Virus record (IMG/VR): IMGVR_UViG_3300029449_000176
Span: 1-33,983 of that record
DNA length: 33,983 nucleotides
Reading direction: 5' to 3' (one strand)
Source of the DNA: a virus
This document shows positions 437 through 23,720 of this stretch, piece by piece. The first letter of the stretch is position 1, and each line of letters starts with the position of its first letter. The notes beneath the pieces were generated by a model that saw nothing but the letters and a program-made list of their open reading frames with translations, ran no database searches and had not been told where the DNA came from. Made by a program: the position numbers and the translations under genes.

Positions 437-1030
437 TTGATAGGATTAGAATATATTTTAAACCTCTATAACCTTCAACATATAGAACTTGCAGAAAAAC
501 TTGGAATTAAAAAACAAAATATAAACATGTGGGTGAAAGGGCGACAGAACATTCCAAAGAAATATCTACCGGTTTTAGAAGAACTCTTTGGCATTGACCA
601 GTCCTATTTTGGACGTGAGCTTAGTGAAATTGATCAGTTAGAAATCCAGAAGGAAAAGCTGAAAAGAGATCTGAAGCCTGTAATCAAAAAGCATGAACAG
701 CAGTTTTCTTTGGGAGAGATTAATGATCTTGTTGAAGTTCCCATCTATGATAAAGAAGAAATGAATGCTATAGAGCGAGATATTGAAAAGGCCAAGCTGG
801 TATCTAAGTTTAAGGCAGCAATGGATATAGTAGATAATAATCCATACTTGGAGACCTATAAGCTCATCGTAGAACTACTTGAAAAAGTGCAGCATGAATC
901 AGTTCTACACAAAACGGTTGAAGCATTGGCTCACTATTACGAAGTCTTACCTGATTGGGTAAGCAGCGAACCGGAACAAGAAGGCTTTGAAAGTGAAATT
1001 TTTGAAGTCTTTGATGATCATAACTATTAA
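437..1030 (+). CDS. XRE-type HTH regulator of the R-M locus
   Basis: A 197-aa protein starting at TTG 437, chosen because AGGAGGT (424-430) lies 6 bases upstream. Residues about 3-55 form a helix-turn-helix of the XRE/Cro type ([20 protein letters not shown], then Q-N-I-P-K-K-Y-L). The rest is charged, helix-rich and not recognised; it may be a dimerisation part, and the C-terminus is acidic. It is the first gene after the promoter/operator at 365-393 and is followed 19 bases later by hsdM. Similar regulators precede type I hsdM genes in Firmicutes, so I infer that it controls the R-M locus. It could instead act as the prophage repressor, since no other CI-like gene is seen. Confidence 0.75.
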
Positions 1031-1049
1031 ACATTTGGAGGGAATATTA

Positions 1050-2573
1050 ATGGCTGAAAACACAGGAAACATTGGATTTGAAGAGACACTTTGGAAAGCG
1101 GCAGATAAGCTGAGAGGCAGCATGGATGCCAGTGAATATAAACACGTGGTACTGGGTCTGATTTTCCTTAAGTACATATCCGATAAATTTGAAACAAAGT
1201 TTAATGCGCTTGTAGAAGAAGGTGCAGGTTTTGAAGAGGACCGAGATGAGTATGAAGCAGAGAATATCTTCTGGGTTCCTAAAGAAGCGAGATGGACATT
1301 TATCAAAGATAATGCAAAAGATTCTAAGATTGGTCAGTACATTGATGATGCCATGATTCTCATTGAAAAAGAGAATCCATCCCTTAAGGGTGTACTGGAT
1401 AAGCGCTACGCAAGGCCAGAAATAGATAAACGAAGACTTGGAGAACTGATTGATCTTATTTCAACCATAAAGCTTCATCAAAATGGAGAAAAGGACTTAC
1501 TTGGTAGAGTGTATGAATATTTCCTTGGCCAGTTTGCCAGCGTTGAAGGAAAAGGTGGTGGAGAATTCTACACCCCTACCAGTGTAGTTAAGACTTTGGT
1601 TGACATGATCGAGCCATACCAAGGTAGAGTGTATGACCCTTGCTGTGGATCGGGCGGTATGTTTGTACAGAGTGAAAAGTTCGTGGAAGATCATCAAGGG
1701 AAAGTTGAAAACCTTTCTATCTATGGTCAGGAAATGAACTCAACTACGTGGAAACTTTGTAAGATGAACCTAGCCATCAGGGGACTTGATGCCAATCTAG
1801 GACCACACCACGATGACACTTTTCATCATGATCTTCATAAGACATTAAAAGCAGATTATATCCTTGCTAATCCACCTTTTAATATCAGTGATTGGGGTGG
1901 CAATCAGCTTACAGATGATGTGAGATGGAAGTTTGGTATTCCACCTGCAGGAAATGCGAACTACGCATGGCTTCAGCATATGGTTTATCATCTGGCTCCC
2001 AATGGCAGTGCAGGGATTGTTCTTGCTAATGGTTCACTAAGTACCAACACTTCAAACGAAGGTGAAATCAGAAAGAATTTATTAGAAGGGGATATGGTCG
2101 ATGCCATTGTTGCACTTCCGGATAGGTTGTTCTATTCCACAGGCATTCCAGTGTCACTATGGATTTTGAACAGAAACAAGAAGGATAATCCGAAGTTCAG
2201 ATCAAGAGAACATGAAGTCCTCTTTATTGATGCACGACAATTGGGAGAAATGATTGATAGACGTCACAGAGAGTTGACGGAGGAAGATGTCAGTAAGATA
2301 TCTGAAACCTATCATGAATGGCGAAATGTCGATGGAGAATACGAAGACATCAAGGGCTTCTGTAAGTCAGCAAAAATTGAAGACATAAGAGAGCATGAAT
2401 ATGTCTTAACTCCTGGAAGATACGTGGGCATAGAAGATGTGGAAGATGATGGCATTCCATTCGATGAAAAAATGGAAAATATGACAGCAGAGCTGGCAGA
2501 ACTCTTTGCTAAATCCCGACACCTAGAAGATGAGATCAGAAAGAATCTTGGAGGTATTGGGTATGAGTTTTAA
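1050..2573 (+). CDS. hsdM: type I restriction-modification DNA methyltransferase subunit HsdM
   Basis: A 507-aa N6-adenine methyltransferase subunit. The start at ATG 1050 follows TTGGAGGG (1036-1042); an upstream in-frame ATG at 987 lies inside the regulator gene and has no good binding site. Residues about 8-150 form the helical HsdM N-terminal domain. The SAM-binding motif is D-P-C-C-G-S-G-G from residue 196, and the catalytic motif N-P-P-F is at 274-277, in the gamma-class order. The enzyme would act with two copies per HsdS to methylate adenines in a bipartite site and protect self DNA. Its stop overlaps the hsdS start by 11 bases, which implies translational coupling. The length is normal and no key residue is missing. 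Confidence 0.95.
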
Positions 2574-3816
2574 TGAATGGAAAGAGTCCAAAATCTCAGA
2601 CTTAATTGAAATAATAGGAGGAGGAACACCTAAGACAAGTATTCCAGAATATTGGAGTGGTAGTATTCCTTGGCTATCAGTTAAGGACTTTAATACAGGA
2701 TACAGATATGTTTATGAAACTGAAAAAACAATCACTGAAATTGGGCTGAATAATAGTTCAACAAAACTATTGAAAAAAGATGACCTTATTATATCCGCTA
2801 GAGGTACAGTAGGAGCTTTAGCTCAATTGGGAAGACCAATGGCATTCAATCAGTCTTGTTATGGATTAAGAGCAAAAGAAATGACTACAAATAATTTTGC
2901 ATATTATCTACTAAAAAATATGATCGGTAATATACAACAAAATACTCATGGATCTGTATTTAATACTATTACAAGAGATACGTTTGATATTTTAAAAGCG
3001 AATTTGCCTCCACTATCTGAACAAAAAGCCATAGCTTATATTCTCTCAACTTTAGACGATAAAATCGAAGTCAATAACCAGATCAACAAAACACTAGAGA
3101 ATATGGCACAAGCAATATTCAAGCAGTGGTTTGTAGATTTCGAATTTCCCAATGAAGATGGAGAACCTTATAAGTCCAGTGGTGGAGAAATGGTTGAAAG
3201 CGAGCTTGGAATGATTCCTAAGGGGTGGAAAGTGAAGGGACTCGATGAAATTGCAGAATTTCTCAACGGTTTAGCTATGCAAAAATTTAGACCTGCAGAG
3301 ACTGAGAAAGCTTATCCAGTCTTAAAAATTAAAGAATTACGTCAAGGAAGAACAGATGAGAGTAGCGATTTATGTTCTTGCAATATTGATGATAAATATA
3401 TTGTGAGAGACGGTGATATAATATTTTCTTGGTCTGGTAGTTTACTAGTTGATATTTGGTGCGGCGGAACTTGCGGCTTAAATCAACATTTGTTTAAGGT
3501 TACATCTGATAAATTTGATGAATGGTTCATTTATCAATGGAACAAGTATCACCTAGATAAATTTGACAGAATTGCAAAAAGCAAGGCCACTACAATGGGA
3601 CATATAAAAAGAAAAGACTTAAGCGATTCAAAAGTATTAGTTCCAAGTAATGAAATATATTTGAAAGCAGCTCAACATCAAAAATATCTATTTGAAAAAA
3701 TAAAGTTTTTAAAGGTTGAAATGAAAAGACTTGAAAAAATAAGAGATTCTCTACTCCCAAAACTCATGTCAGGTGAAATCAGAGTTCCCTTGGATGAAGA
3801 AGGTGCTGCATCATGA
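2563..3816 (+). CDS. hsdS: type I restriction-modification specificity subunit HsdS
   Basis: A 417-aa protein with start ATG 2563 behind GGAGG at 2550-2554, inside the end of hsdM. It shows the two-half HsdS plan. TRD1 covers about residues 1-150 (G-G-G-T-P-K-T, then I-P-W-L-S-V-K-D). A central helical spacer contains [10 protein letters not shown] and W-F-V-D-F-E-F. TRD2 covers about 210-365, and the C-terminal conserved helix contains [10 protein letters not shown]. Each TRD reads half of a bipartite target and the spacers fix the gap. The target sequence cannot be read from the protein. TRDs are the part of these loci exchanged most often; the coding here is AT-richer than in hsdM. The stop overlaps the next ATG by 4 bases. 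Confidence 0.93.
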
Positions 3817-4016
3817 AATTTGGATTCCGGAAACCTAGCCTAAAAAGAAGAATCTCTGCTAGGACCAGTATAAAAAGACAGGTAGTGCACAGGGCAGGGA
3901 TAAAAATGCCTAGGGGATATGGGTTTCTTAGAAATCCTAAGAAAGCAGTTTATAACAAAGTATATAATCGAGCATCTTTTGATATATTCAAAACACTAAA
4001 AAAGCTGTTCAAATAA
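3813..4016 (+). CDS. small very basic protein between hsdS and hsdR
   Basis: A 67-aa protein whose ATG overlaps the hsdS stop (ATGA), so it is very likely translated by coupling. It is rich in Lys and Arg, with few acidic residues, and contains A-G-I-K-M-P-R-G-Y-G-F and N-P-K-K-A-V-Y-N-K-V-Y-N-R. I remember similar short basic proteins from Firmicutes mobile elements but know no function. The charge suggests nucleic-acid binding; that is inference. No signal peptide or membrane segment is seen. Its place inside the hsdS-hsdR interval makes a role tied to the R-M complex possible. Confidence 0.7.
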   Translation: MKFGFRKPSLKRRISARTSIKRQVVHRAGIKMPRGYGFLRNPKKAVYNKVYNRASFDIFKTLKKLFK

Positions 4017-4063
4017 CTACTCATTCAAGGTGGGTTCGTTGAATGGAGAAGTGGAGGTGCGAG

Positions 4064-4156
4064 GTGATCAATAAAATAATAGAATTAAATCAAATGACTG
4101 CTCTGGAAATGCGAATCAATATTAAAGATTGTCTGGGAGGTGGTAGTGATGAGTAG
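4064..4156 (+). CDS. possible 30-aa leader peptide coupled to hsdR
   Basis: A short open frame starts at GTG 4064 with GGAGGT (4053-4058) 5 bases upstream and ends at TAG 4154-4156, overlapping the hsdR start at 4149. The peptide is [17 protein letters not shown] and on to L-G-G-G-S-D-E. Its last codons read through the ribosome binding site of hsdR (GGGAGG, 4135-4140), so its translation would expose or compete with that site. A coupling role is inference; the frame could be a chance one. Confidence 0.4.
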
Positions 4157-7100
4157 TGTAAATGGTATTTTTACGGAAGCAATGCTTGAAGAAGCAGCTA
4201 TTGAAATATTACAAAGTCTTGGCTACGATTATGCCTTTGGCCCAGACATCTCTTTAGGTGGAGATTATGAGGAGCGTAAAGATTTTCGTGAGGTGATCCT
4301 TTCACATAGAGTTAAAGAAGCACTTTTTAGGATTAACCGAGATCTTCCAAGAGAAGCGCTTGATGATGCCTATCGTCAACTGATTACATTTAACAGCCCA
4401 ATGCTGGAAGAAAACAATCGATATTTTCATCAATTAATGACAGAAGGGATAGAAGTATCCTTTAATGAAGGTGGGCATATTCGAACTAAAAGGGCATATA
4501 TCATAGACTTTGAAAATATGAGTAATAATGAGTTCGTGGTCGTCAATCAATTTACCATAATTGAAAATGAAGAGAGAAGACCAGATCTCATTGTTTTTGT
4601 AAATGGTCTACCTCTTGTGGTTATAGAATTAAAGTCCGCCAGTGATGAAAATGTGGGGATTGATGGTGCCTTCAATCAGATACAAACTTATAAAAGAGAC
4701 ATTCCATCACTATTTAACTATAACGCTTTTTGTATCATCTCTGATGGGATCAATGCCAAAGCAGGAACCATTACTTCCAATGAAGAGTGGTTTATGAACT
4801 GGAGAACCGTTGATGGGGAGAATATCGCACCTTTATCTGAGCCTCAGTATGAAGTATTGCTAAATGGTATGTTCCATAAGGAAAGATTATTGGATATCAT
4901 TCAAAACTTTATTCTTTTCCAGGAGTCTAAAGAACCGGAGAAGGACATTGATGGAAAGAAAATAGGGGATAAAAAATCCATCATTAAAATCTTGGCAGCC
5001 TATCATCAGTACTTTGCTGTTAAGAAAGCGATTGAAAAAACAAAAGAAGCGACAAAGGAAGACGGCGATCGTAAGATCGGTGTTGTTTGGCATACACAAG
5101 GTTCTGGAAAGAGTTTCTCTATGGTGTTCTATACCGGGGGCCTTGTGCGGGAACTGAATAATCCAACCATCGTGGTCATAACTGATAGAAATGACCTGGA
5201 CGATCAGCTTTTCACAACCTTCTCTAAATCAAAAGATATCCTGCGTCAGACTCCAAAACAAGCAACAGTAAGGAAACTTTCAGATAGCCAGAGAACGAAT
5301 TATGTGGGTGGTAATAGCACTGAGGTTAATGGGCTTTATGACCTTTTAAATGATAGAGAGTCTGGTGGGATTATCTTCACCACCATTCAAAAGTTCAAAC
5401 CAGAAGATGGCGAGATGCCAGTACTCACTGATCGTAAGAATGTCATCATCATCGCAGATGAAGCCCACAGAAGCCAATACGGATTAGAGGCCAAAGTGGA
5501 TTCTAAAACCGGTGAAGTGAATTATGGTTATGCTAAATACCTAAGAGATGCACTACCTAATGCGTCTTTTATCGGCTTTACAGGGACACCGATTGATCTT
5601 GAAGATCGATCTACTGTAGCCATATTTGGTCATACCATTGATACATATGACATGACCCAGGCGGTAGAAGATGAAGCAACGGTTCGGATTTATTATGAAA
5701 ACCGCATTATTAAACTGGAAACAGATGAAGAAGAGCTGACAAAAATTGATGATGAGTTTGAAGAGATCACAGAAGGTCAGGAAGAATTTGAGAAGGATAA
5801 AAACAGAGCCAAATGGTCCAGAATGGAATCCATTGTGGGTTCTCCAAACAGAGTCAAAAAGCTTGCTGAAGATATAGTAAATCATTACGAAGAAAAAGCA
5901 AAGAGCATCGATGGCAAGGCTATGGTTGTCTGCATGAGTCGAAGAATCTGTGTTGAGCTCTATGATGCCATAACAAAACTGAGACCCGATTGGCACAACG
6001 ATGATGTTGATAAAGGAAAAATAAAAGTTGTTATGACCGGCAGCGCCGCAGATAATGAAAAGCTACAGAAGCATCTAGGAGGTAAACAGCGTAGGGATTT
6101 ATTGGCCAAACGTATGAAGGACAATAGTGACGAACTTAAAATAGTGATAGTTCGTGACATGTGGCTCACTGGATTTGATGTGCCATCCATGCATACCATG
6201 TATATTGACAAGCCAATGAAGGGGCATAACCTGATGCAAGCTATTGCAAGGGTTAATCGCGTCTTTAAAGAGAAATCAGGCGGTGTAGTGGTTGACTATA
6301 TCGGGATTTTAGAAAGTTTAAAGAGCGCCTTAAAACAATACACCAATACGGATCGTCAGAATACTGGTATTGATACGGATGTTGCTGTTGCTGTTATGCT
6401 TGAAAAACTGGAAATATTAAGAGACATGATGCATGGCTATGATTACTCAAAATATATGGGCAACTCCCAAGTGGAAAGAATGAGGACTATTGTAGGTGGT
6501 ATGGACTTCATTCTCGGAAAGAAAGAAGAAGAACAAAAGGAATTTAAAAAGACAGCTCTTGAATTAGGAAAGGCTCATGCACTATGTGCTGCAACTGATA
6601 AAGGGAAAGAAAAGGCTCTTGAAATCAGCTATTTTAAAGCAGTTAAAGCCAGCCTTGTCAAGCTAAAGGAAAAGGACAAAACGCCACTATCAAAAAGAGA
6701 AATTGAAGCAAGACTTCATCAAATGCTGGAACGCTCCATCATCTCAGAAGATGTTATTGATGTATTTGATGCCATGGGAATCAAAAGGCCGGAGATCTCA
6801 ATCCTTTCTGAAGAGTTCTTAAAAGAAGTTCAGGGAATGAAGCAGAAGAACTTAGCTGTAGAAATGCTTAAAAAGTTATTAGAAGGCAACATCAAAGCTA
6901 TGGAAAAGAGAAACATCGTGAAATCAGAGAAGTTCTCTGAAAGGCTGACAAAGGCTCTAAACAAGTATCGAAACCAAGCACTTACAAATGCTGAAGTGAT
7001 TGAAGAACTTATTAGAATGGCCCACGACATTAAAAAGATGCGAGAAGAAGAGGCTGAACTGGGTCTAAGCGACGATGAAATTGCTTTTTATGATGCACTG

Positions 7101-7403
7101 ACAGCGGATGATATCGTTAAAGAACTTATGGAAGATGAAACGCTTAAGAAAATCGCTCATGAATTAACTTTGGCTATAAGAAATAATATCACCATTGATT
7201 GGAGCGTTCGAAAAAGTGCAAGAGCGAGCATGAGACGTGTAATTAAGAGGCTTCTTAGCAAGTATGACTATCCACCAGATCAAGCATTAAAAGCGATGAA
7301 TATTGTCATGAGGCAAGCAGAGAAAATGGCTGGAAATGTTTATGAAGAAGTTATCTGGTCAGATAGAGTTGCAGAAGAACCTGGGGAATTTACAATTGAT
7401 TGA
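4149..7403 (+). CDS. hsdR: type I restriction-modification restriction subunit HsdR
   Basis: A 1084-aa protein, the usual HsdR length. ATG 4149 is chosen because GGGAGG (4135-4140) lies 8 bases upstream. The N-terminal nuclease has the PD-(D/E)xK core: D146 in R-P-D-L-I-V and E160-L-K162. The translocase follows, with Walker A T-Q-G-S-G-K-S (316-322), DEAH box D-E-A-H (437-440), F-T-G-T-P-I, and a second RecA lobe with W-L-T-G-F-D-V-P and Q-A-I-A-R-V-N-R. The C-terminal third is helical and would contact the methyltransferase core. The enzyme pumps unmethylated DNA using ATP and cuts when blocked. All catalytic motifs look intact, so the system appears functional. Confidence 0.95.
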
Positions 7404-7421
7404 TGAAAGGATTGATTTTAG

Positions 7422-7643
7422 ATGGCGGATATAAAATACGAAATCAAAAAAACTGTGGGTGCTCTATCCGAAAACAATAAAGGTTGGTCAAAGGAGCTGA
7501 ATTTAATCAGCTGGAATGACAGGGAACCTAAATATGACATCAGAGATTGGGCACCTGAACATGAGAAGATGGGCAAAGGTGTAACCTTAAGCGTAGAAGA
7601 ACTTAAAAAGCTTAGGGAGATACTGAATGAAATGGAACTTTAG
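7422..7643 (+). CDS. YdbC/PC4-family ssDNA-binding protein
   Basis: A 73-aa protein starting at ATG 7422, 18 bases after hsdR. It matches the bacterial YdbC group of the PC4 fold: L-S-E-N-N-K-G-W-S-K-E-L-N, W-N-D-R-E-P-K-Y-D-I-R-D-W and H-E-K-M-G-K-G-V-T-L. In this family a small dimer binds single-stranded DNA through a beta-sheet groove. These genes are common in phages and integrative elements. It probably shares the R-M transcript. Whether it serves restriction, the downstream helicase system or phage replication cannot be told. The frame after its TAG stays open for 46 codons (see findings). Confidence 0.8.
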   Translation: MADIKYEIKKTVGALSENNKGWSKELNLISWNDREPKYDIRDWAPEHEKMGKGVTLSVEELKKLREILNEMEL

Positions 7644-7854
7644 AGTTGGAGGAATGGGGAAATAAACTCTTTTAGGGATGTCGTAAAAGCTCTATTTTAT
7701 AATGAAATATACAAGGAGCTATCATTTTATATAGAAGAGAACCCTTCCAAGCTAGACTGTAGATACTCTGAGTCTAATGATTAAGCATAGTCATGGTGAT
7801 GGAGTCGATCGATTATATAAAAATTGCTGTAATAGAATAATAGGAGGCATCGCA

Positions 7855-9312
7855 ATGAAACGATTATGTTTTGGTACACTTATGCACATATTGTATCAAG
7901 CTCGTAACCAGAAAGTTACGAATGATTTGTTGTGCGATGCTATCTTTTCTTCTTATTCTCAAACAACAAATTCTTTTGATAGTTCCTTGCCTGGACATCT
8001 CAAAAGTGGCCGGAATAATGTACCACCAGATGTGATTGCCGCTGCTAGAGATACATCATTTGAAGATGCAGAAAGAGTATTTCAAAATAAAGTAGTTAAG
8101 TTAATAAAAGATAGTAAGCGGGAATCGGTAGTTAGGGCTATTAAGGAAGTTTTGCGCGAGGATGTATCACTTCAAGACCATTTTGTGATTGGATATTTTA
8201 AGGGGTATGAAAAAAGCAATATTATAAGTAGCTCTACATTTAGCTTTTCTGCGCTTTTAGCCTCGGTGTTTTATTATGCAATAATTGAAGTAAAAAACCA
8301 AGGATGTCAAGAAGGAATAAAAGAGATCGATAAAAAATTTGTTGAGTCTTTTGATCTATCTGACGAGCAAATTTATTTTGAAGATACAAAAACAGAAACT
8401 CAAATTCCTTTGCAAAAGACTTTACATGACCCGACTTTTGACAGGGTATTTGAAAAAGCCTCATCTATAAACATATTCGGTTTATCTAATCCGTCCAATG
8501 TACATATATACGGTGTTGACGCTAATAATTGCAAGTTTAAGTTTAGGGCGCTAAAGGAATATCTTGTGGATAACATAGGAAACTATGTCTTTTCTAGAGC
8601 CAAAACAAACAGACTTGTTACTTCAAAGAAAAGTTCTGCTATAGGATCACAAGCTTTAATTAAATTTATGCAAGCTTATGGAGCCTCTGCAGAAACGGTC
8701 CTAGGAGAAATGCTCCTTTATGTATTTATGGAACAAGAGCTAAATGCACCTAAAATAATGAGCAAAATCGAAATAAATGATCTAGGTAGAAATATCGAAA
8801 GTAAAAGTGATGGGGTTCACCTGCTTGCTATAAATGATAATGGCCAGCTATTCCATCAACTTGTCTTTGGTGCATCAGATGTTTATGGAGATTTAGCCTT
8901 AGCGATTGACCGCGCATTCGATAAGATTATTGAGATTGAAAGTAACAGTGACACTGAATTAAAGATGGTGGAGAACACCACACACGGAAGCATATATGAT
9001 TCGGATACAACAAATTATATGGTTAATCTTCTGATACCTAATAAAGCTAGTGTAGCAAAACCAGATATGGCCTTTGGTGTTTTCCTTGGTTATACACTTT
9101 CGTTAGGCTACACAGAAACTAATAATAACAAGTATCGTATTGCAGTCAAAGAACAGATGAAGAAAGATATTTCTGCTCTAAAGCCGTATATTGAACAGAA
9201 AATTTTTGATAACGGTATGAGTGGGTATAATTTTTATTTTTACGTTGTGCCCTTTAATGATGCTCCATTAGAGAAAAGCAGTATTATATCGGAAATGCTT
9301 GATGGGAGGTAG
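7855..9312 (+). CDS. HamA-like (DUF1837) Hachiman/AbpA-type defence protein with N-terminal extension
   Basis: A 485-aa protein; the start is ATG 7855 behind AATAGGAGG, whereas an in-frame ATG at 7777 has no binding site. The C-terminal part, about residues 265-470, looks like the DUF1837 domain of HamA/AbpA: G-E-M-L-L-Y from G284, K-S-D-G-V-H around D319, then H-Q-L-V-F-G-A-S-D-V-Y-G-D-L and a helix A-I-D-R-A-F. The first 200 or so residues (R-L-C-F-G-T-L-M-H-I-L onward) form a separate helical domain that I cannot name, longer than in classical HamA. It is followed 4 bases after its stop by the helicase partner, the usual HamA-HamB order. Family members are nucleases that act when the helicase senses damaged or invading DNA. 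Here the expected ExK position reads A-S-D, so activity is uncertain. Confidence 0.75.
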   Translation: MKRLCFGTLMHILYQARNQKVTNDLLCDAIFSSYSQTTNSFDSSLPGHLKSGRNNVPPDVIAAARDTSFEDAERVFQNKVVKLIKDSKRESVVRAIKEVLREDVSLQDHFVIGYFKGYEKSNIISSSTFSFSALLASVFYYAIIEVKNQGCQEGIKEIDKKFVESFDLSDEQIYFEDTKTETQIPLQKTLHDPTFDRVFEKASSINIFGLSNPSNVHIYGVDANNCKFKFRALKEYLVDNIGNYVFSRAKTNRLVTSKKSSAIGSQALIKFMQAYGASAETVLGEMLLYVFMEQELNAPKIMSKIEINDLGRNIESKSDGVHLLAINDNGQLFHQLVFGASDVYGDLALAIDRAFDKIIEIESNSDTELKMVENTTHGSIYDSDTTNYMVNLLIPNKASVAKPDMAFGVFLGYTLSLGYTETNNNKYRIAVKEQMKKDISALKPYIEQKIFDNGMSGYNFYFYVVPFNDAPLEKSSIISEMLDGR

Positions 9313-9316
9313 GAGG

Positions 9317-11932
9317 ATGCAAACACCAAGAAATCAAACTCTTGCCGAAGCGTTGTATAGAGATATTGACAAGAATGATTATTTAAAAGAGATATACGAA
9401 TCATTGCTTTATAATTACTCAATCAATTTGTTTAAGTTAAGGAAACAGCAAAAAGAGATAAACATAAAAGATGCATTAAGATTTGCGGACCTGTTAGCAA
9501 AATCTACCCTACCAGACAAACGTGATAAACATCGATTGTGGGGTCAGGAACTCGTAATTTTATTAAGTATTGTTTATCCGGAAGACTTAGTAGTCAAGTA
9601 TTACCTCGGTTCTGTTCTTTCGACAGTTGGTAATTATCGTGGCTTGAAATCTACTTATATTGAGGGATTTCAAACTTCTGATGTGTTTGATGGTTTGTAT
9701 TTTGAGTATGATAAATCTAGATTACAAATACCAGGTGATGAGGGAAGTTATTTTTTTCATGATCAGAAAGATGTATATGATGGATTAAATTATAAGTACT
9801 TTAGCTATTCTGGACCTACCTCAATGGGCAAATCATTTGTCGTACAAACATATATTAAACAACAAATAGAAAAAGGTTCAACCAAGAATTATGCTATTCT
9901 TGTACCCACGAAAGCTTTAATAAACGAAGTACGAAGTGAAATAATTGGAAGTCTTCAAGAAAAGCTAAAAGAAACAAATTATCGTGTTGTCAGTGCATCT
10001 GGAGATATTGTATTACAACAAGAACACAGCTTTATTTTTGTTATGACTCCAGAACGTCTGCTTCATATGATGATAGGTATGCCCAAAATAAAAATTGATT
10101 TTCTGTTTGTAGATGAGGCTCATAAAATATCAGACAGAGGTGGGCGTAGTGCTTATTATTATAAAGTGATTGCACAGCTATCTAAGATGAAGGAAATGCC
10201 AACAGTAGTTTTTGCGTCTCCAAATATTCCAAACCCAGAAGTTTACCTCGGTTTGATACCAAAAATCAATATAGATGAAGTAAAAAAACTAGCATCAAAA
10301 TATACACCAGTATGCCAGTTTAAATATTTTCTGGATTTATGCGAAGGTCAAGCCTACTTTCATAATGATTATTCTAAATCATTATCATTGATAGGAGATA
10401 TACCACAAGAAGATGAGTTGAGTGATATTGTTAATCGAGTTGGATCCACACAACAAAACATTATCTATTGCAATTCGAGACAAAAAGTTGTCGATTATGC
10501 TGTACAATATGCAACCAAACTTCCTATTAAAGATGATGAAAAGCTTATCTCATTAGCTAATGATATCCGTACTGAGGTCCATAGTGATTGTTATCTTGCT
10601 GATTTAATACAACGAGGGGTAGCATATCATGTCGGATACCTCCCTACCAACATCCGATTAAGAATAGAGAAGAGTTTTGTTGATGGTATTCTAAGAACAA
10701 TATTCTGTACTAGCACACTTGTTGAAGGAGTAAATCTACCAGCAGATAACTTATTTATTACAAGCTATAGAAACGGAAATTCTAATATGGATGAAGTGGA
10801 ATTTAGAAACTTGGTAGGACGTGTTGGGCGGATAAAATATAATTTATATGGAAATGTGTTCTTGATTCGCATGGAGGATAGACTTAAAACTCAGAATTAT
10901 ATTAATTTACTTCAAAACGACGTTCCGGAACAGGAGATTTCCATTAACATAATAGATAACAAAAAATATTTGAACTTGGTAGTTGATGATTTAGCTCGTG
11001 GTGACATGGAACTGACCAAGGTTCGTGAAGCAACAACCTCAAAGGACTTTGAAGCGTTGCGAAAATTTGCAATGATTTTTACCAAAGATATTGCAGAGGA
11101 TAATATTACACCTATACGAGAAGCTTTTTCATCGCTATTAGATGAAGAAAGTGAATATAAAATAAAAGAAAACTTTCCTGTCGAAAAGACAAGTGACGAT
11201 ATCAATTTTTCATACGACCAAATTATTAACTTAAGGGCCCTTGTTGAAAGTGGGCAAGAATATCCAAAATTAACAGGAGAAAATGATGAGGTCGATTTCG
11301 AAGAAGTTGTTGATTTTCTAATGAAGCTTAGAAAGGTGTTCAAATGGGATATCTATGAAAAACGAACAATAGGCAAAACAGGTATTTATCGAGAGGATTC
11401 CGTTATAAGATGGTATGCGGTTATCCTATTAAGATGGATTAGGGGCAGTGGTCTTAGTCAGATTATATACCATGCACTTAAATATAAAGAGAAAAATCCA
11501 AATACAGGTGTATGGGTTGGCAATATGAAAATGGCTGATGTTTATAATAAGAACTCCAAATCCCACAAAAACTATATTATTGCTGAAACACTTGGTGTAA
11601 TTGAAAATGTCCTTTTATTTAGTATCTCAAATTATTTTAGGAAATTTTCCCTGGAATATAAGGATGTACATCAAGTAGATCATTTCCAAAATGATTGGTA
11701 TGAATATGTGGAATACGGTACAACAAATCCTTTGACTATTTTTCTTCAACAAAGTGGTTTTTCACGAGAATCTTCAAAATATATAGAACAACCATCTAAT
11801 CAGAATAAATATTTAATAGAAGTTGATGGTGAAATAAAAATCCACCGTTCGATACTCACGTGTGGTAATATCGGCGTTGAAACCGAAGCACACGATATAC
11901 AATTTAATATGCCTGAACTATTTATTGACTAG
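9317..11932 (+). CDS. HamB-like DEAH superfamily 2 helicase (Hachiman/AbpB type)
   Basis: An 871-aa helicase. ATG 9317 is preferred because GGAGG (9305-9309) lies 7 bases upstream; two earlier in-frame starts (9299, 9302) have none. Motifs: Walker A G-P-T-S-M-G-K-S at about 166-173, P-T-K-A-L-I (motif Ia), D-E-A-H at 266-269, a motif III-like A-S-P-N, T-S-T-L-V-E-G-V-N-L-P (motif V) and L-V-G-R-V-G-R at about 499-505 (motif VI). Residues 1-130 are helical, and about 570-871 form a C-terminal region without named motifs. Known HamB proteins load on DNA ends or gaps and hold HamA inactive until triggered. The pair makes one operon closed by the terminator at 11950. The coding is AT-rich relative to the phage genes, in keeping with acquired cargo. 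Confidence 0.8.
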   Translation: MQTPRNQTLAEALYRDIDKNDYLKEIYESLLYNYSINLFKLRKQQKEINIKDALRFADLLAKSTLPDKRDKHRLWGQELVILLSIVYPEDLVVKYYLGSVLSTVGNYRGLKSTYIEGFQTSDVFDGLYFEYDKSRLQIPGDEGSYFFHDQKDVYDGLNYKYFSYSGPTSMGKSFVVQTYIKQQIEKGSTKNYAILVPTKALINEVRSEIIGSLQEKLKETNYRVVSASGDIVLQQEHSFIFVMTPERLLHMMIGMPKIKIDFLFVDEAHKISDRGGRSAYYYKVIAQLSKMKEMPTVVFASPNIPNPEVYLGLIPKINIDEVKKLASKYTPVCQFKYFLDLCEGQAYFHNDYSKSLSLIGDIPQEDELSDIVNRVGSTQQNIIYCNSRQKVVDYAVQYATKLPIKDDEKLISLANDIRTEVHSDCYLADLIQRGVAYHVGYLPTNIRLRIEKSFVDGILRTIFCTSTLVEGVNLPADNLFITSYRNGNSNMDEVEFRNLVGRVGRIKYNLYGNVFLIRMEDRLKTQNYINLLQNDVPEQEISINIIDNKKYLNLVVDDLARGDMELTKVREATTSKDFEALRKFAMIFTKDIAEDNITPIREAFSSLLDEESEYKIKENFPVEKTSDDINFSYDQIINLRALVESGQEYPKLTGENDEVDFEEVVDFLMKLRKVFKWDIYEKRTIGKTGIYREDSVIRWYAVILLRWIRGSGLSQIIYHALKYKEKNPNTGVWVGNMKMADVYNKNSKSHKNYIIAETLGVIENVLLFSISNYFRKFSLEYKDVHQVDHFQNDWYEYVEYGTTNPLTIFLQQSGFSRESSKYIEQPSNQNKYLIEVDGEIKIHRSILTCGNIGVETEAHDIQFNMPELFID

Positions 11933-11949
11933 TTTTAAGCATTAATTAG

Positions 11950-11981
11950 GCCTCCTGCAGAAATGCAGGGGGCTTTTTTTT
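11950..11981 (+). terminator. Rho-independent terminator of the defence cargo
   Basis: GCCTCCTGCA (11950-11959) and TGCAGGGGGC (11964-11973) form a 10-bp stem with one G-U pair and a GAAA loop, followed by eight T residues. It lies 17 bases after the helicase stop and separates the defence cargo from the phage-type genes. Confidence 0.92.
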
Positions 11982-21331: not shown

Positions 21332-22513
21332 ATGAGTAAAAACTACAGAACCGCAGAAAGTGTATGTAAGGGACATCCTGATAAGCTTTGTGATTTAGTT
21401 GCAGACAGTATTTTAGATGCGTGCCTTCGAAAAGATAAGGCTTCAAGAGTTGCCTGTGAGGTTATGGCTACTAAGGGAAAAATTATCGTGGCGGGCGAGA
21501 TCACCTGCAGCGAAAAAATAGATATTCGTCTCATTGTAAGAAATGTACTTCGTGAAGTTGGATATAACCCAAGGAAATTTAGAGTATCCGTGTTTGTACA
21601 TCATCAAAGTGTAGATATTGCTTCTGGTGTAGATACAGCTCTTGAAGTAAGAAATGGAATTATAGACCCATACGGTTCCATCGGTGCTGGTGACCAAGGC
21701 ACTGTTTATGGTTATGCAACAAATGAAACAAGAGAAAAGCTGCCTTTGCCACTACTTCTTTCTCATAGAATTGTTAAGCGCATTGATGAATGTCGCGAAG
21801 GTAAAATCATCAAGGGCATCTTACCCGATGGAAAGGCTCAAGTCACTATTGAGTACTATGGCGATAAACCTATTCGCGTTAAAACAGTTGTGGTATCTGT
21901 TCAGCATCACAAGGATAAAACAATGGAGCAACTAGAATCAGATATCTTAAATAACGTGCTCTGGCAGTGTTTTGAGGATTTACCGGTTGATGATGACACT
22001 GAAATCCTCATCAATCCGTCAGGACGATTTGTCGAAGGTGGCCCTGCTGCTGATACAGGCCTTACAGGAAGAAAGATTATGGTTGATACCTATGGTGGAC
22101 TGGCTTCTCACGGTGGAGGTGCACTTTGCGGAAAGGATCCAACCAAGGTAGATAGGAGCGGCGCCTATATGGCCAGATACATTGCTAAGAATATTGTTTG
22201 GAGCGGGCTTGCTGAAAAATGTGAGGTCGCTCTTTCTTATGCCATCGGAAAAGCAAATCCCGTAGCAGTTAGTGTTAACTCTTTTGGAACTGGAATAATC
22301 AGTGACGAGCATTTATGTGGAGTTGTTCTAGAAACCTTTAATCTACGTCCAGCGGCCATTATCGAAAAGCTGCGACTTAGAAATGCAATTTACTCCGATA
22401 CAGCAACCTACGGTCATTTTAATTCCTGTCTATTCCCCTGGGAGAATGTAGACTTTAACTTGAATTTAAGAAAGGCGGCGGAAAGATATGAAGATCGAAA
22501 AATTGAAGACTAA
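21332..22513 (+). CDS. metK: phage-encoded S-adenosylmethionine synthetase
   Basis: A 393-aa enzyme of normal length, ATG 21332. It makes SAM from methionine and ATP. All signature segments are present: H-P-D-K at 15-18, E-V-M-A-T-K-G-K, G-A-G-D-Q-G from 118 with Y-A-T-N-E-T, and the phosphate loop G-G-G-A-L-C-G-K-D-P-T-K-V-D-R-S from 261 (usually F-S in place of L-C). The gating region D-T-G-L-T-G-R-K-I is also kept, so the enzyme should be active. It overlaps the DNA methyltransferase gene by 26 bases, so SAM supply and use are coupled. The setting inside a packaging module shows that it is a phage gene, not the host metK. Confidence 0.93.
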   Translation: MSKNYRTAESVCKGHPDKLCDLVADSILDACLRKDKASRVACEVMATKGKIIVAGEITCSEKIDIRLIVRNVLREVGYNPRKFRVSVFVHHQSVDIASGVDTALEVRNGIIDPYGSIGAGDQGTVYGYATNETREKLPLPLLLSHRIVKRIDECREGKIIKGILPDGKAQVTIEYYGDKPIRVKTVVVSVQHHKDKTMEQLESDILNNVLWQCFEDLPVDDDTEILINPSGRFVEGGPAADTGLTGRKIMVDTYGGLASHGGGALCGKDPTKVDRSGAYMARYIAKNIVWSGLAEKCEVALSYAIGKANPVAVSVNSFGTGIISDEHLCGVVLETFNLRPAAIIEKLRLRNAIYSDTATYGHFNSCLFPWENVDFNLNLRKAAERYEDRKIED

Positions 22514-23720
22514 AAACCTCATCCCCGCTGACTATAATCCACGAAAGGACTTAAAGCCTGGGGATGCTGAATACGAAAAGCTAAAGCGATCCATTGAAGA
22601 GTTTGGCTATGTCGAACCTGTTATCTGGAATAAGACTACTGGAAGAGTTGTAGGTGGCCACCAGAGATTAAAAGTGCTCCTTGATTTAAGAATGGATGAA
22701 GTTGAGTGCGTAGTTATTGAAATGGATGAAGAAAAAGAAAAGGCTCTCAACATTGCTCTTAATAAAATCAGTGGTGACTGGGACAAGGATAAATTGGCTC
22801 TACTTATCGCTGACCTCCAAGGTGCTGACTTTGATGTTTCCCTTACAGGATTTGATCCTGCTGAACTGGACGATCTATTTAAAGATTCCTTGAAGGATGG
22901 CATTCATGATGATGAATTTGATGTGGACGGGGAGCTTGAAAAACCAGCTATGACAAAACTTGGTGACGTTTGGAAGCTTGGACCCCATAGACTTATTTGC
23001 GGTGACTCTACCAAGGCTGAAACCTTCATGATCCTTATGGATGGAAAGCAAGCAAATTTGGTGGTGACAGACCCGCCTTACAATGTGAACTACGAAGGGT
23101 CTGCTGGAAAAATTAAAAATGATAACATGGGCGATTCTGCTTTTTATGAATTCCTGCTAGCGGCTTTCACCAATGCGGAAGCAGTGATGACAGAGGACTC
23201 TTCTATCTATGTTTTTCACGCGGATACGGAAGGGCTGAACTTTAGAAAAGCCTTCTCGGATGCTGGTTTTTATCTATCAGGTACCTGCATCTGGAAAAAG
23301 CAATCTCTAGTTCTTGGTAGGTCCCCTTACCAGTGGCAGCATGAGCCTGTGCTCTTTGGGTGGAAGAATAAGGGCAAGCACAAGTGGTATGCTGATAGAA
23401 AGCAAACGACTATATGGGAATTTGAAAAACCTAAGAAGAATGGATCTCATCCAACAATGAAGCCTGTGGCGCTTGTGGCTCATCCAATTCTTAATTCAAG
23501 TCTTAGTAACTGCATCGTCCTGGATCCCTTTGGCGGTTCAGGTAGTACGCTTATTGCCTGTGAACAAACCCAGAGAATTTGTCACACCATTGAGCTTGAT
23601 GAGAAGTTTTGTGATGTTATAGTGGAAAGGTTTATTTCTAGTGTTGAATCAGCAGATGAAGTTTACCTTATTCGTGATGGAAAAGAATACCGCTATAGTG
23701 ACCTCCTAGAAAATAAATAA
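22488..23720 (+). CDS. ParB-domain DNA methyltransferase, beta class
   Basis: A 410-aa fusion, ATG 22488 inside the end of metK. Residues 1-110 are a ParB N-terminal-like domain (I-P-A-D-Y-N-P-R-K, G-G-H-Q-R near 56-60). Residues about 165-400 are an amino-methyltransferase with D-P-P-Y at 195-198 before D-P-F-G-G-S-G-S-T from 346, the beta-class order of N6-adenine or N4-cytosine enzymes. No restriction partner lies next to it, so it is an orphan enzyme. It could protect phage DNA from restriction or mark DNA for packaging. The target site is not readable. ParB-methyltransferase fusions are common in Firmicutes prophages near the terminase. Confidence 0.92.
   Translation: MKIEKLKTKNLIPADYNPRKDLKPGDAEYEKLKRSIEEFGYVEPVIWNKTTGRVVGGHQRLKVLLDLRMDEVECVVIEMDEEKEKALNIALNKISGDWDKDKLALLIADLQGADFDVSLTGFDPAELDDLFKDSLKDGIHDDEFDVDGELEKPAMTKLGDVWKLGPHRLICGDSTKAETFMILMDGKQANLVVTDPPYNVNYEGSAGKIKNDNMGDSAFYEFLLAAFTNAEAVMTEDSSIYVFHADTEGLNFRKAFSDAGFYLSGTCIWKKQSLVLGRSPYQWQHEPVLFGWKNKGKHKWYADRKQTTIWEFEKPKKNGSHPTMKPVALVAHPILNSSLSNCIVLDPFGGSGSTLIACEQTQRICHTIELDEKFCDVIVERFISSVESADEVYLIRDGKEYRYSDLLENK

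What the first reader, a model, noticed from the sequence alone, without database searches (positions are those of the whole stretch)
7855..11932. Hachiman/AbpAB-like pair with an extended HamA and a changed active-site motif
Seen: a 485-aa HamA-like protein, with DUF1837-type C-terminus, next to a DEAH helicase. The first ~200 residues form an additional helical domain. At the place where I expect the family's E-x-K (after the D-G-V-H strand) the protein reads F-G-A-S-D-V-Y. Family knowledge: HamA nuclease activity needs a PD-(D/E)xK-type site. Inference: either the nuclease is dead and the N-terminal domain is the effector, or the site is rearranged. This could be a separate Hachiman subtype.
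Basis: partly seen in the sequence, partly recalled or inferred. Interest (0 to 1): 0.75.

Follow-up and report, generated by a model that had tools for sequence, protein, structure and literature searches.

The report
Hachiman variant with borrowed N-terminal domain
A phage-borne two-gene anti-phage system (Hachiman) in which the usual DNA-cutting enzyme has lost its cutting site and instead carries an all-helical front domain, of no recognisable fold, that it shares with another bacterial immune system (Lamassu/ABC-3C).

Summary
HamA (485 aa, 7855-9312) has a clear HamA/DUF1837 C-terminal domain (E=9e-37) and is followed by the helicase HamB (9317-11932). The canonical G-E-x-K site reads F-G-A-S-D; the E and the K are lost in all ten relatives of this type, while the domain stays under strong purifying selection. 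So the nuclease is very probably dead and the domain is kept for something else. The extended subtype is not unknown: one PADLOC HamA model covers the whole protein, and dead-HamA fusions (AbpA, trypsin-HamA) are published. What I could not find described is the first ~170 residues. They form a compact all-helical domain (AlphaFold pLDDT 95) without a match among PDB folds. It also heads the effector subunit of Lamassu/ABC-3C systems (37% identity, E=4e-37 between the closest pair), often in the same prophage slot. Best reading: HamB senses damaged DNA, the dead HamA domain transmits, and the N-domain is the output module. That last step is inferred: no catalytic signature was found, and close relatives with dead HamA but no N-domain exist. 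New variant of a known kind.

The parts
7855..9312 (+). HamA fusion protein, 485 aa (N-domain + linker + degenerate HamA domain)
   Evidence: RBS at 7843-7847
7843..7847 (+). ribosome-binding site GGAGG of hamA
   Evidence: sequence printed
7855..8370 (+). N-domain, residues 1-172: all-helical module shared with Lamassu/ABC-3C effector subunits
8371..8550 (+). linker and lead-in to the HamA domain, residues 173-232
   Evidence: AF2 confidence falls after residue ~178
8551..9255 (+). HamA (DUF1837) domain, residues 233-467, catalytically degenerate
   Evidence: Pfam PF08878 E=9.2e-37; place
8707..8709 (+). Glu285, conserved helix Glu of the nuclease core (retained)
8809..8811 (+). Asp319, the D of the canonical D-ExK site (retained here, S in L024)
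8866..8880 (+). F338-G-A-S-D342, at the place of canonical F-G-E-x-K
9317..11932 (+). HamB, DEAD/DEAH Ski2-like helicase, 871 aa
11948..11975 (+). terminator-like hairpin just after hamB
   Evidence: 12 pairs, T run
7422..7643 (+). PC4-like gene upstream (neighbour, kept in L002, L003, L007; not claimed as part of the mechanism)
4140..7403 (+). HsdR of a type I R-M system upstream (neighbour; HsdM 987-2573, HsdS 2530-3816)

Best explanation
A phage-carried Hachiman variant. HamB is an intact helicase that, as in characterised Hachiman, would bind DNA and be triggered by damaged or replicating phage DNA. The HamA domain has lost the E and K of its nuclease site and works as a structural transmitter bound to HamB. 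The output is moved to the fused N-terminal domain, an all-helical module that also sits in the effector (LmuA) subunit of Lamassu/ABC-3C systems; when HamAB is triggered and HamA oligomerises or is released, the N-domains are brought together and stop the infected cell. Shown here: fusion, loss of ExK, purifying selection on the dead domain, module sharing with Lamassu/ABC-3C, a confident fold without PDB match. Inferred: the HamB trigger, HamA as transmitter, the N-domain as effector; its biochemical activity is unknown.
For: ExK lost in 10/10 fusion members, kept in intact relatives. dN/dS 0.05-0.10 in the dead HamA domain and 0.04-0.18 in the N-domain (some pairs near dS saturation): both are maintained. 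N-domain homologous to the N-terminus of CTD11 ABC-3C proteins (L054 vs L026: 37% over 167 aa, gapless, E=4e-37) and of a CTD6 LmuA protein (L055, hhalign 97.9%; PADLOC LmuA E=1.4e-72), next to middle component and LmuB-type ATPase. In L055 the N-domain is followed by CTD6 with no other recognised domain. Published LmuA N-termini are effectors and their C-termini probable docking parts (PMC10586767). In HamMAB the dead HamA domain is a HamB-bound oligomerisation part and the fused domain does the work (PMC12799240). The same clade has a TIR domain in the same place (L074). No gene other than hamA and hamB is constant across the fusion loci, so no trans effector is evident.
Against: No enzymatic signature, Pfam hit or PDB fold match for the N-domain. 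Dead HamAs without any fused domain exist: L076, L077 (next to OLD + helicase genes), L078, L073, so loss of ExK is not tied to this fusion. In CTD11 proteins the N-domain is followed by a zinc/HNH-like stretch that could itself be the effector there. AlphaFold could not model the HamA domain with the few rows allowed, so the dead site rests on sequence alignment.
Confidence: 0.5

Rival explanations
1. The N-domain is an adaptor or sensor, not an effector: it binds DNA, a phage protein or a partner and recruits a separate effector (for instance the neighbouring R-M enzyme or a host nuclease) to HamAB, as it would in Lamassu/ABC-3C.
For: No catalytic signature; an N-terminal stretch that resembles an XRE-type helix-turn-helix by eye (TQK..L...S.L..GKKN); in CTD11 proteins a second, zinc-binding stretch lies between N-domain and CTD; R-M genes lie beside many of these loci.
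Against: Foldseek gives no helix-turn-helix match above noise; no neighbour gene is constant across fusion loci; in L055 there is no other recognised effector domain in the subunit.
Confidence: 0.33
2. Dead-HamA systems work through HamB alone (stalling, unwinding or blocking phage DNA), and the N-domain only regulates or stabilises the complex.
For: Close relatives with dead HamA and no fused domain keep an intact-looking hamB (L076, L077, L078, L073).
Against: In characterised systems, mutating the nuclease (HamA) or the fused effector abolishes defence (PMC12278908, PMC12799240); the N-domain is kept under purifying selection.
Confidence: 0.12
3. The HamA nuclease is active with a rearranged site (retained Glu285 and Asp319 plus residues elsewhere).
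For: Glu285 and Asp319 are mostly retained.
Against: The E and K positions are A and D/N/E/Q/H in 10/10; D319 is S in L024 and E285 is D in L054; no invariant Lys after the site.
Confidence: 0.05

Closest known systems
Hachiman (HamA-HamB), PADLOC HamA model PDLC00164
   Same: Full-length match 1-488 of 490, E=8e-254; HamB full-length match; same gene order.
   Different: PADLOC does not name the N-domain or the loss of ExK; the same model also fires on ABC-3C proteins through the N-domain alone (E=2.9e-30).
AbpAB (Hachiman variant) and the solved HamA of PDB 9wh1
   Same: N-terminal extension and a HamA C-terminal domain with lost catalytic residues (PMC12278908; 9wh1_A, 528 aa, E=1.1e-9, ExK position reads A-x-I).
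   Different: AbpA's N-terminal domain is similar to the Cap4 nuclease (PMC12278908); the N-domain here has no sequence or fold match in the PDB; the match to 9wh1_A covers only the HamA domain.
Trypsin-HamA / HamMAB
   Same: Fused N-terminal domain on a degenerate HamA paired with HamB (PMC12799240).
   Different: No trypsin domain found in HamA here and no constant extra gene that could be HamM.
Lamassu / ABC-3C (LmuA-LmuC-LmuB)
   Same: The N-domain heads the LmuA-position subunit with CTD11/MC7/DUF2326-ATPase and with CTD6/MC2/LmuB.
   Different: Here the C-terminal partner is a HamA domain and the sensor is the helicase HamB; no SMC-like ATPase or middle component.
TIR-HamA fusion L074
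   Same: Same degenerate-HamA clade, fused N-terminal domain, HamB next.
   Different: TIR_2 domain in place of the N-domain; site reads FGKSS.

Membership tests
Hachiman | HamA/DUF1837 domain | tested here: met
   PF08878 E=9.2e-37; PADLOC HamA E=8e-254
Hachiman | HamB Ski2-like helicase encoded next to HamA with intact helicase motifs | tested here: met
   PADLOC HamB E=0; motifs in the translation
Hachiman | HamA D-GExK nuclease site (canonical Hachiman) | tested here: not met
   reads D319 ... G-A-S-D; E and K lost. Published Hachiman fusion variants also lack it (PMC12799240, PMC12278908), so this is a variant, not canonical Hachiman
Hachiman | DNA-damage-triggered defence by HamAB | not testable with these tools
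   needs phage and biochemical assays
AbpAB / Cap4-HamA | Cap4-type nuclease at the N-terminus | tested here: not met
   No Pfam, PDB-sequence or fold match; all-helical model
HamMAB (trypsin-HamA) | trypsin domain on HamA plus adjacent MBL-fold nuclease gene | tested here: not met
   no trypsin match in HamA, upstream gene is PC4-like
Lamassu / ABC-3C | N-terminal domain of a LmuA-type subunit | tested here: met
   37% identity over 167 aa between HamA fusion L054 and ABC-3C protein L026; hhalign 97.9% with LmuA protein L055
Lamassu / ABC-3C | ABC-3C C-terminal domain, middle component and SMC-like ATPase | tested here: not met
   none beside hamA; HamA domain and HamB instead

The most novel reading that the evidence does not exclude
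The N-domain is an unrecognised cell-killing or growth-stopping effector of new fold that Hachiman and Lamassu/ABC-3C have shared by exchange within one prophage defence slot, so that a helicase sensor and an SMC-like sensor drive the same output.
Probability: 0.4. Interest if true: 0.75.

Novelty: new variant of a known kind. Interest (0 to 1): 0.55.

Why it matters
It shows one domain of no recognisable fold used by two unrelated sensors (HamB helicase, LmuB-type ATPase), carried by phages themselves in the same replication-module slot. That gives a small, testable candidate for a new effector or adaptor, and a natural experiment on what a dead HamA domain is for: the same clade holds N-domain fusions, a TIR fusion and unfused forms. 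It also warns that PADLOC's PDLC00164 can call an ABC-3C gene 'HamA'.

Tried and rejected
Full-length AlphaFold model: most of the HamA domain is below pLDDT 50 with the rows allowed, so its Foldseek search is worthless and is not used. N-domain Foldseek against PDB and BFVD: best E 2.0 and 1.6, probability at most 0.15, no match. N-domain profile against PDB sequences: nothing below E 0.24. Helix-turn-helix reading of residues ~6-60: only by eye, not backed by any search. N-terminal helical domains of other LmuA-like proteins (L082, L086, L088-L090): hhalign 39%, suggestive only. NBR1-Ig gene upstream of dead HamA in L073 as an N-domain in trans: not supported by the N-domain profile (0.2%). 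N-domain on plasmids: none found (with the L005 N-domain; one search matches only the HamA part). A first tree in which all dead HamAs were N-domain fusions was a sampling effect: adding L073, L074, L076-L078 showed other dead members in the same clade. Literature on PDB 9wh1, and on this N-domain in ABC-3C systems, was not found in the library.

Full report
What is there. The window is a virus record of 33,983 bases, a tailed-phage genome fragment with terminase, portal and capsid genes on the right and a defence block on the left: HsdM, HsdS, HsdR of a type I R-M system, a PC4-like gene, hamA, hamB, closed by a terminator-like hairpin at 11948-11975. hamA starts at 7855, with GGAGG at 7843-7847, and encodes 485 residues; hamB most likely starts at 9317.

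The HamA domain. Pfam HamA matches residues 233-467 at E=9.2e-37. I aligned the C-terminal part of ten fusion proteins with intact HamA proteins from unrelated genomes and from plasmids. The three elements of the nuclease core line up: helix Glu (G-E-M-L-L-Y, Glu285), the strand with Asp319 (S-D-G-V-H), and the G-E-x-K strand. The domain is not decaying: dN/dS is 0.05-0.10 between relatives for which it can be computed. In characterised Hachiman the E138A,K140A double mutant loses defence (PMC12278908).

Not the first dead HamA. AbpA has a Cap4-like domain on a catalytically inactive HamA (PMC12278908), and about 5% of Hachiman systems have trypsin fused to a HamA that in virtually all cases lacks D-GEXK; there the dead HamA domain is needed for activation and can be replaced by a dimerisation peptide (PMC12799240). 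PADLOC model PDLC00164 already spans the whole protein of the present type, and the nearest solved HamA, 9wh1_A, also lacks E-x-K in the aligned position. So the class 'fused, dead HamA' is known. PMC12799240 also mentions other, single-origin HamA fusions in supplementary figures that I could not read; this fusion may be among them.

The N-domain. Residues 1-172 have no Pfam family and no convincing PHROG. With 21 related rows AlphaFold gives a single all-helical domain of ten helices at mean pLDDT 94.9, pTM 0.91. Foldseek finds no counterpart in 350,542 PDB chains (best E 2.0, probability below 0.05 at the top) or in BFVD. Its homologues are telling. A profile search found the same domain at the start of proteins that end in CTD11 of the ABC-three-component systems and are followed by middle component MC7 and a DUF2326 ATPase; one HamA fusion and one ABC-3C protein are 37% identical over 167 residues without a gap, E=4e-37. 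It also begins a 338-residue protein with CTD6, followed by MC2 and an ATPase, which PADLOC calls LmuA (E=1.4e-72) and LmuB; hhalign gives 97.9% for that link. A tree of the N-domains separates the HamA set and the CTD11 set (97/96), so exchange looks old rather than continual in this sample.

Where it happens. In many loci the module lies beside the same phage replication genes (PolA, DUF2815, DUF2800): about 16 loci with the ABC-3C version (L026, L031-L036, L039-L045 and others), L024 and L054 with the HamAB version, and L055 with the LmuA version. The same slot thus accepts N-domain-HamA-HamB or N-domain-ABC-3C cassettes. In L009 (Enterococcus aquimarinus) only the first 64 residues remain, 95% identical, before unrelated sequence begins, a visible break inside the module. 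In L023/L030 the hamA C-terminus is cut and no hamB was found in the stretch held.

What the dead clade looks like. Adding close relatives of the C-terminal domain changed my first picture. The degenerate HamA clade (14 rows, 100/99) holds nine N-domain fusions, a TIR fusion (L074, TIR_2 E=3.5e-11), and four unfused proteins: L073 (FGKSN), L076 (FGKSR), L077 (FGKSH), L078 (FGTSS). The nearest intact relatives, L075, L079, L080, are unfused. The simplest reading is that the nuclease site was lost once in this clade, and that different domains, or none, sit on the dead HamA. This fits a transmitter role for the HamA domain and an interchangeable output, but the unfused members show that a fused output is not always needed, or that it can come in trans.

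Mechanism. By analogy with characterised HamAB and HamMAB, HamB senses DNA and the HamA domain passes the signal. I think the N-domain is the output: it takes the place held by Cap4-like, trypsin or TIR domains in other HamAs and by effector domains in LmuA (PMC10586767), and no other gene is constant across the fusion loci. Against this stand the lack of any catalytic signature, the zinc-binding HNH-like stretch that accompanies it in CTD11 proteins, and the unfused dead HamAs. I give the full chain 0.5, the adaptor reading 0.33.

Verdict. Observation confirmed. Interpretation half right: dead nuclease yes; new subtype no in the strict sense, since databases already hold it. The less expected part is the shared, unclassified domain that links Hachiman and Lamassu/ABC-3C.

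Noticed in passing
L074:4433-5920 +: TIR-HamA fusion (TIR_2 E=3.5e-11, HamA E=2.2e-34) with degenerate site FGKSS, followed by HamB and preceded by type I R-M genes.
   Followed up: partly
L073:5851-7941 -: Unfused dead HamA (FGKSN) preceded by an HTH_17 gene and a 303-aa gene with a C-terminal NBR1-type Ig domain; possible trans partner.
   Followed up: partly
L076:5013-10408 + and L077:5094-10490 +: Unfused dead HamA + HamB between a type I R-M operon and an OLD-type TOPRIM ATPase with a helicase-like gene (Gabija-like).
   Followed up: partly
L026:5901-7139 +: PADLOC HamA model PDLC00164 matches this ABC-3C CTD11 protein through the N-domain alone (E=2.9e-30): a source of false HamA calls.
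   Followed up: yes
L026, L027, L005, L086, L088, L089: Between the N-terminal helical domain and CTD11 lies a CxxC...CxxC stretch resembling an HNH domain without the usual catalytic His in most copies.
   Followed up: no
window 987-11932: Type I R-M operon, PC4-like gene and HamAB lie back to back; L003 and L007 keep HsdR (96-97%), PC4 and HamAB while HsdS differs (38-42%).
   Followed up: partly
window 21332-23720: The phage carries its own S-adenosylmethionine synthetase next to an N6/N4 DNA methylase with a ParB-like N-terminus.
   Followed up: no
L008:900-2660 (Globicatella sulfidifaciens): A copy of hamA-hamB about 93-97% identical to the window's, broken by stops and frame changes.
   Followed up: no
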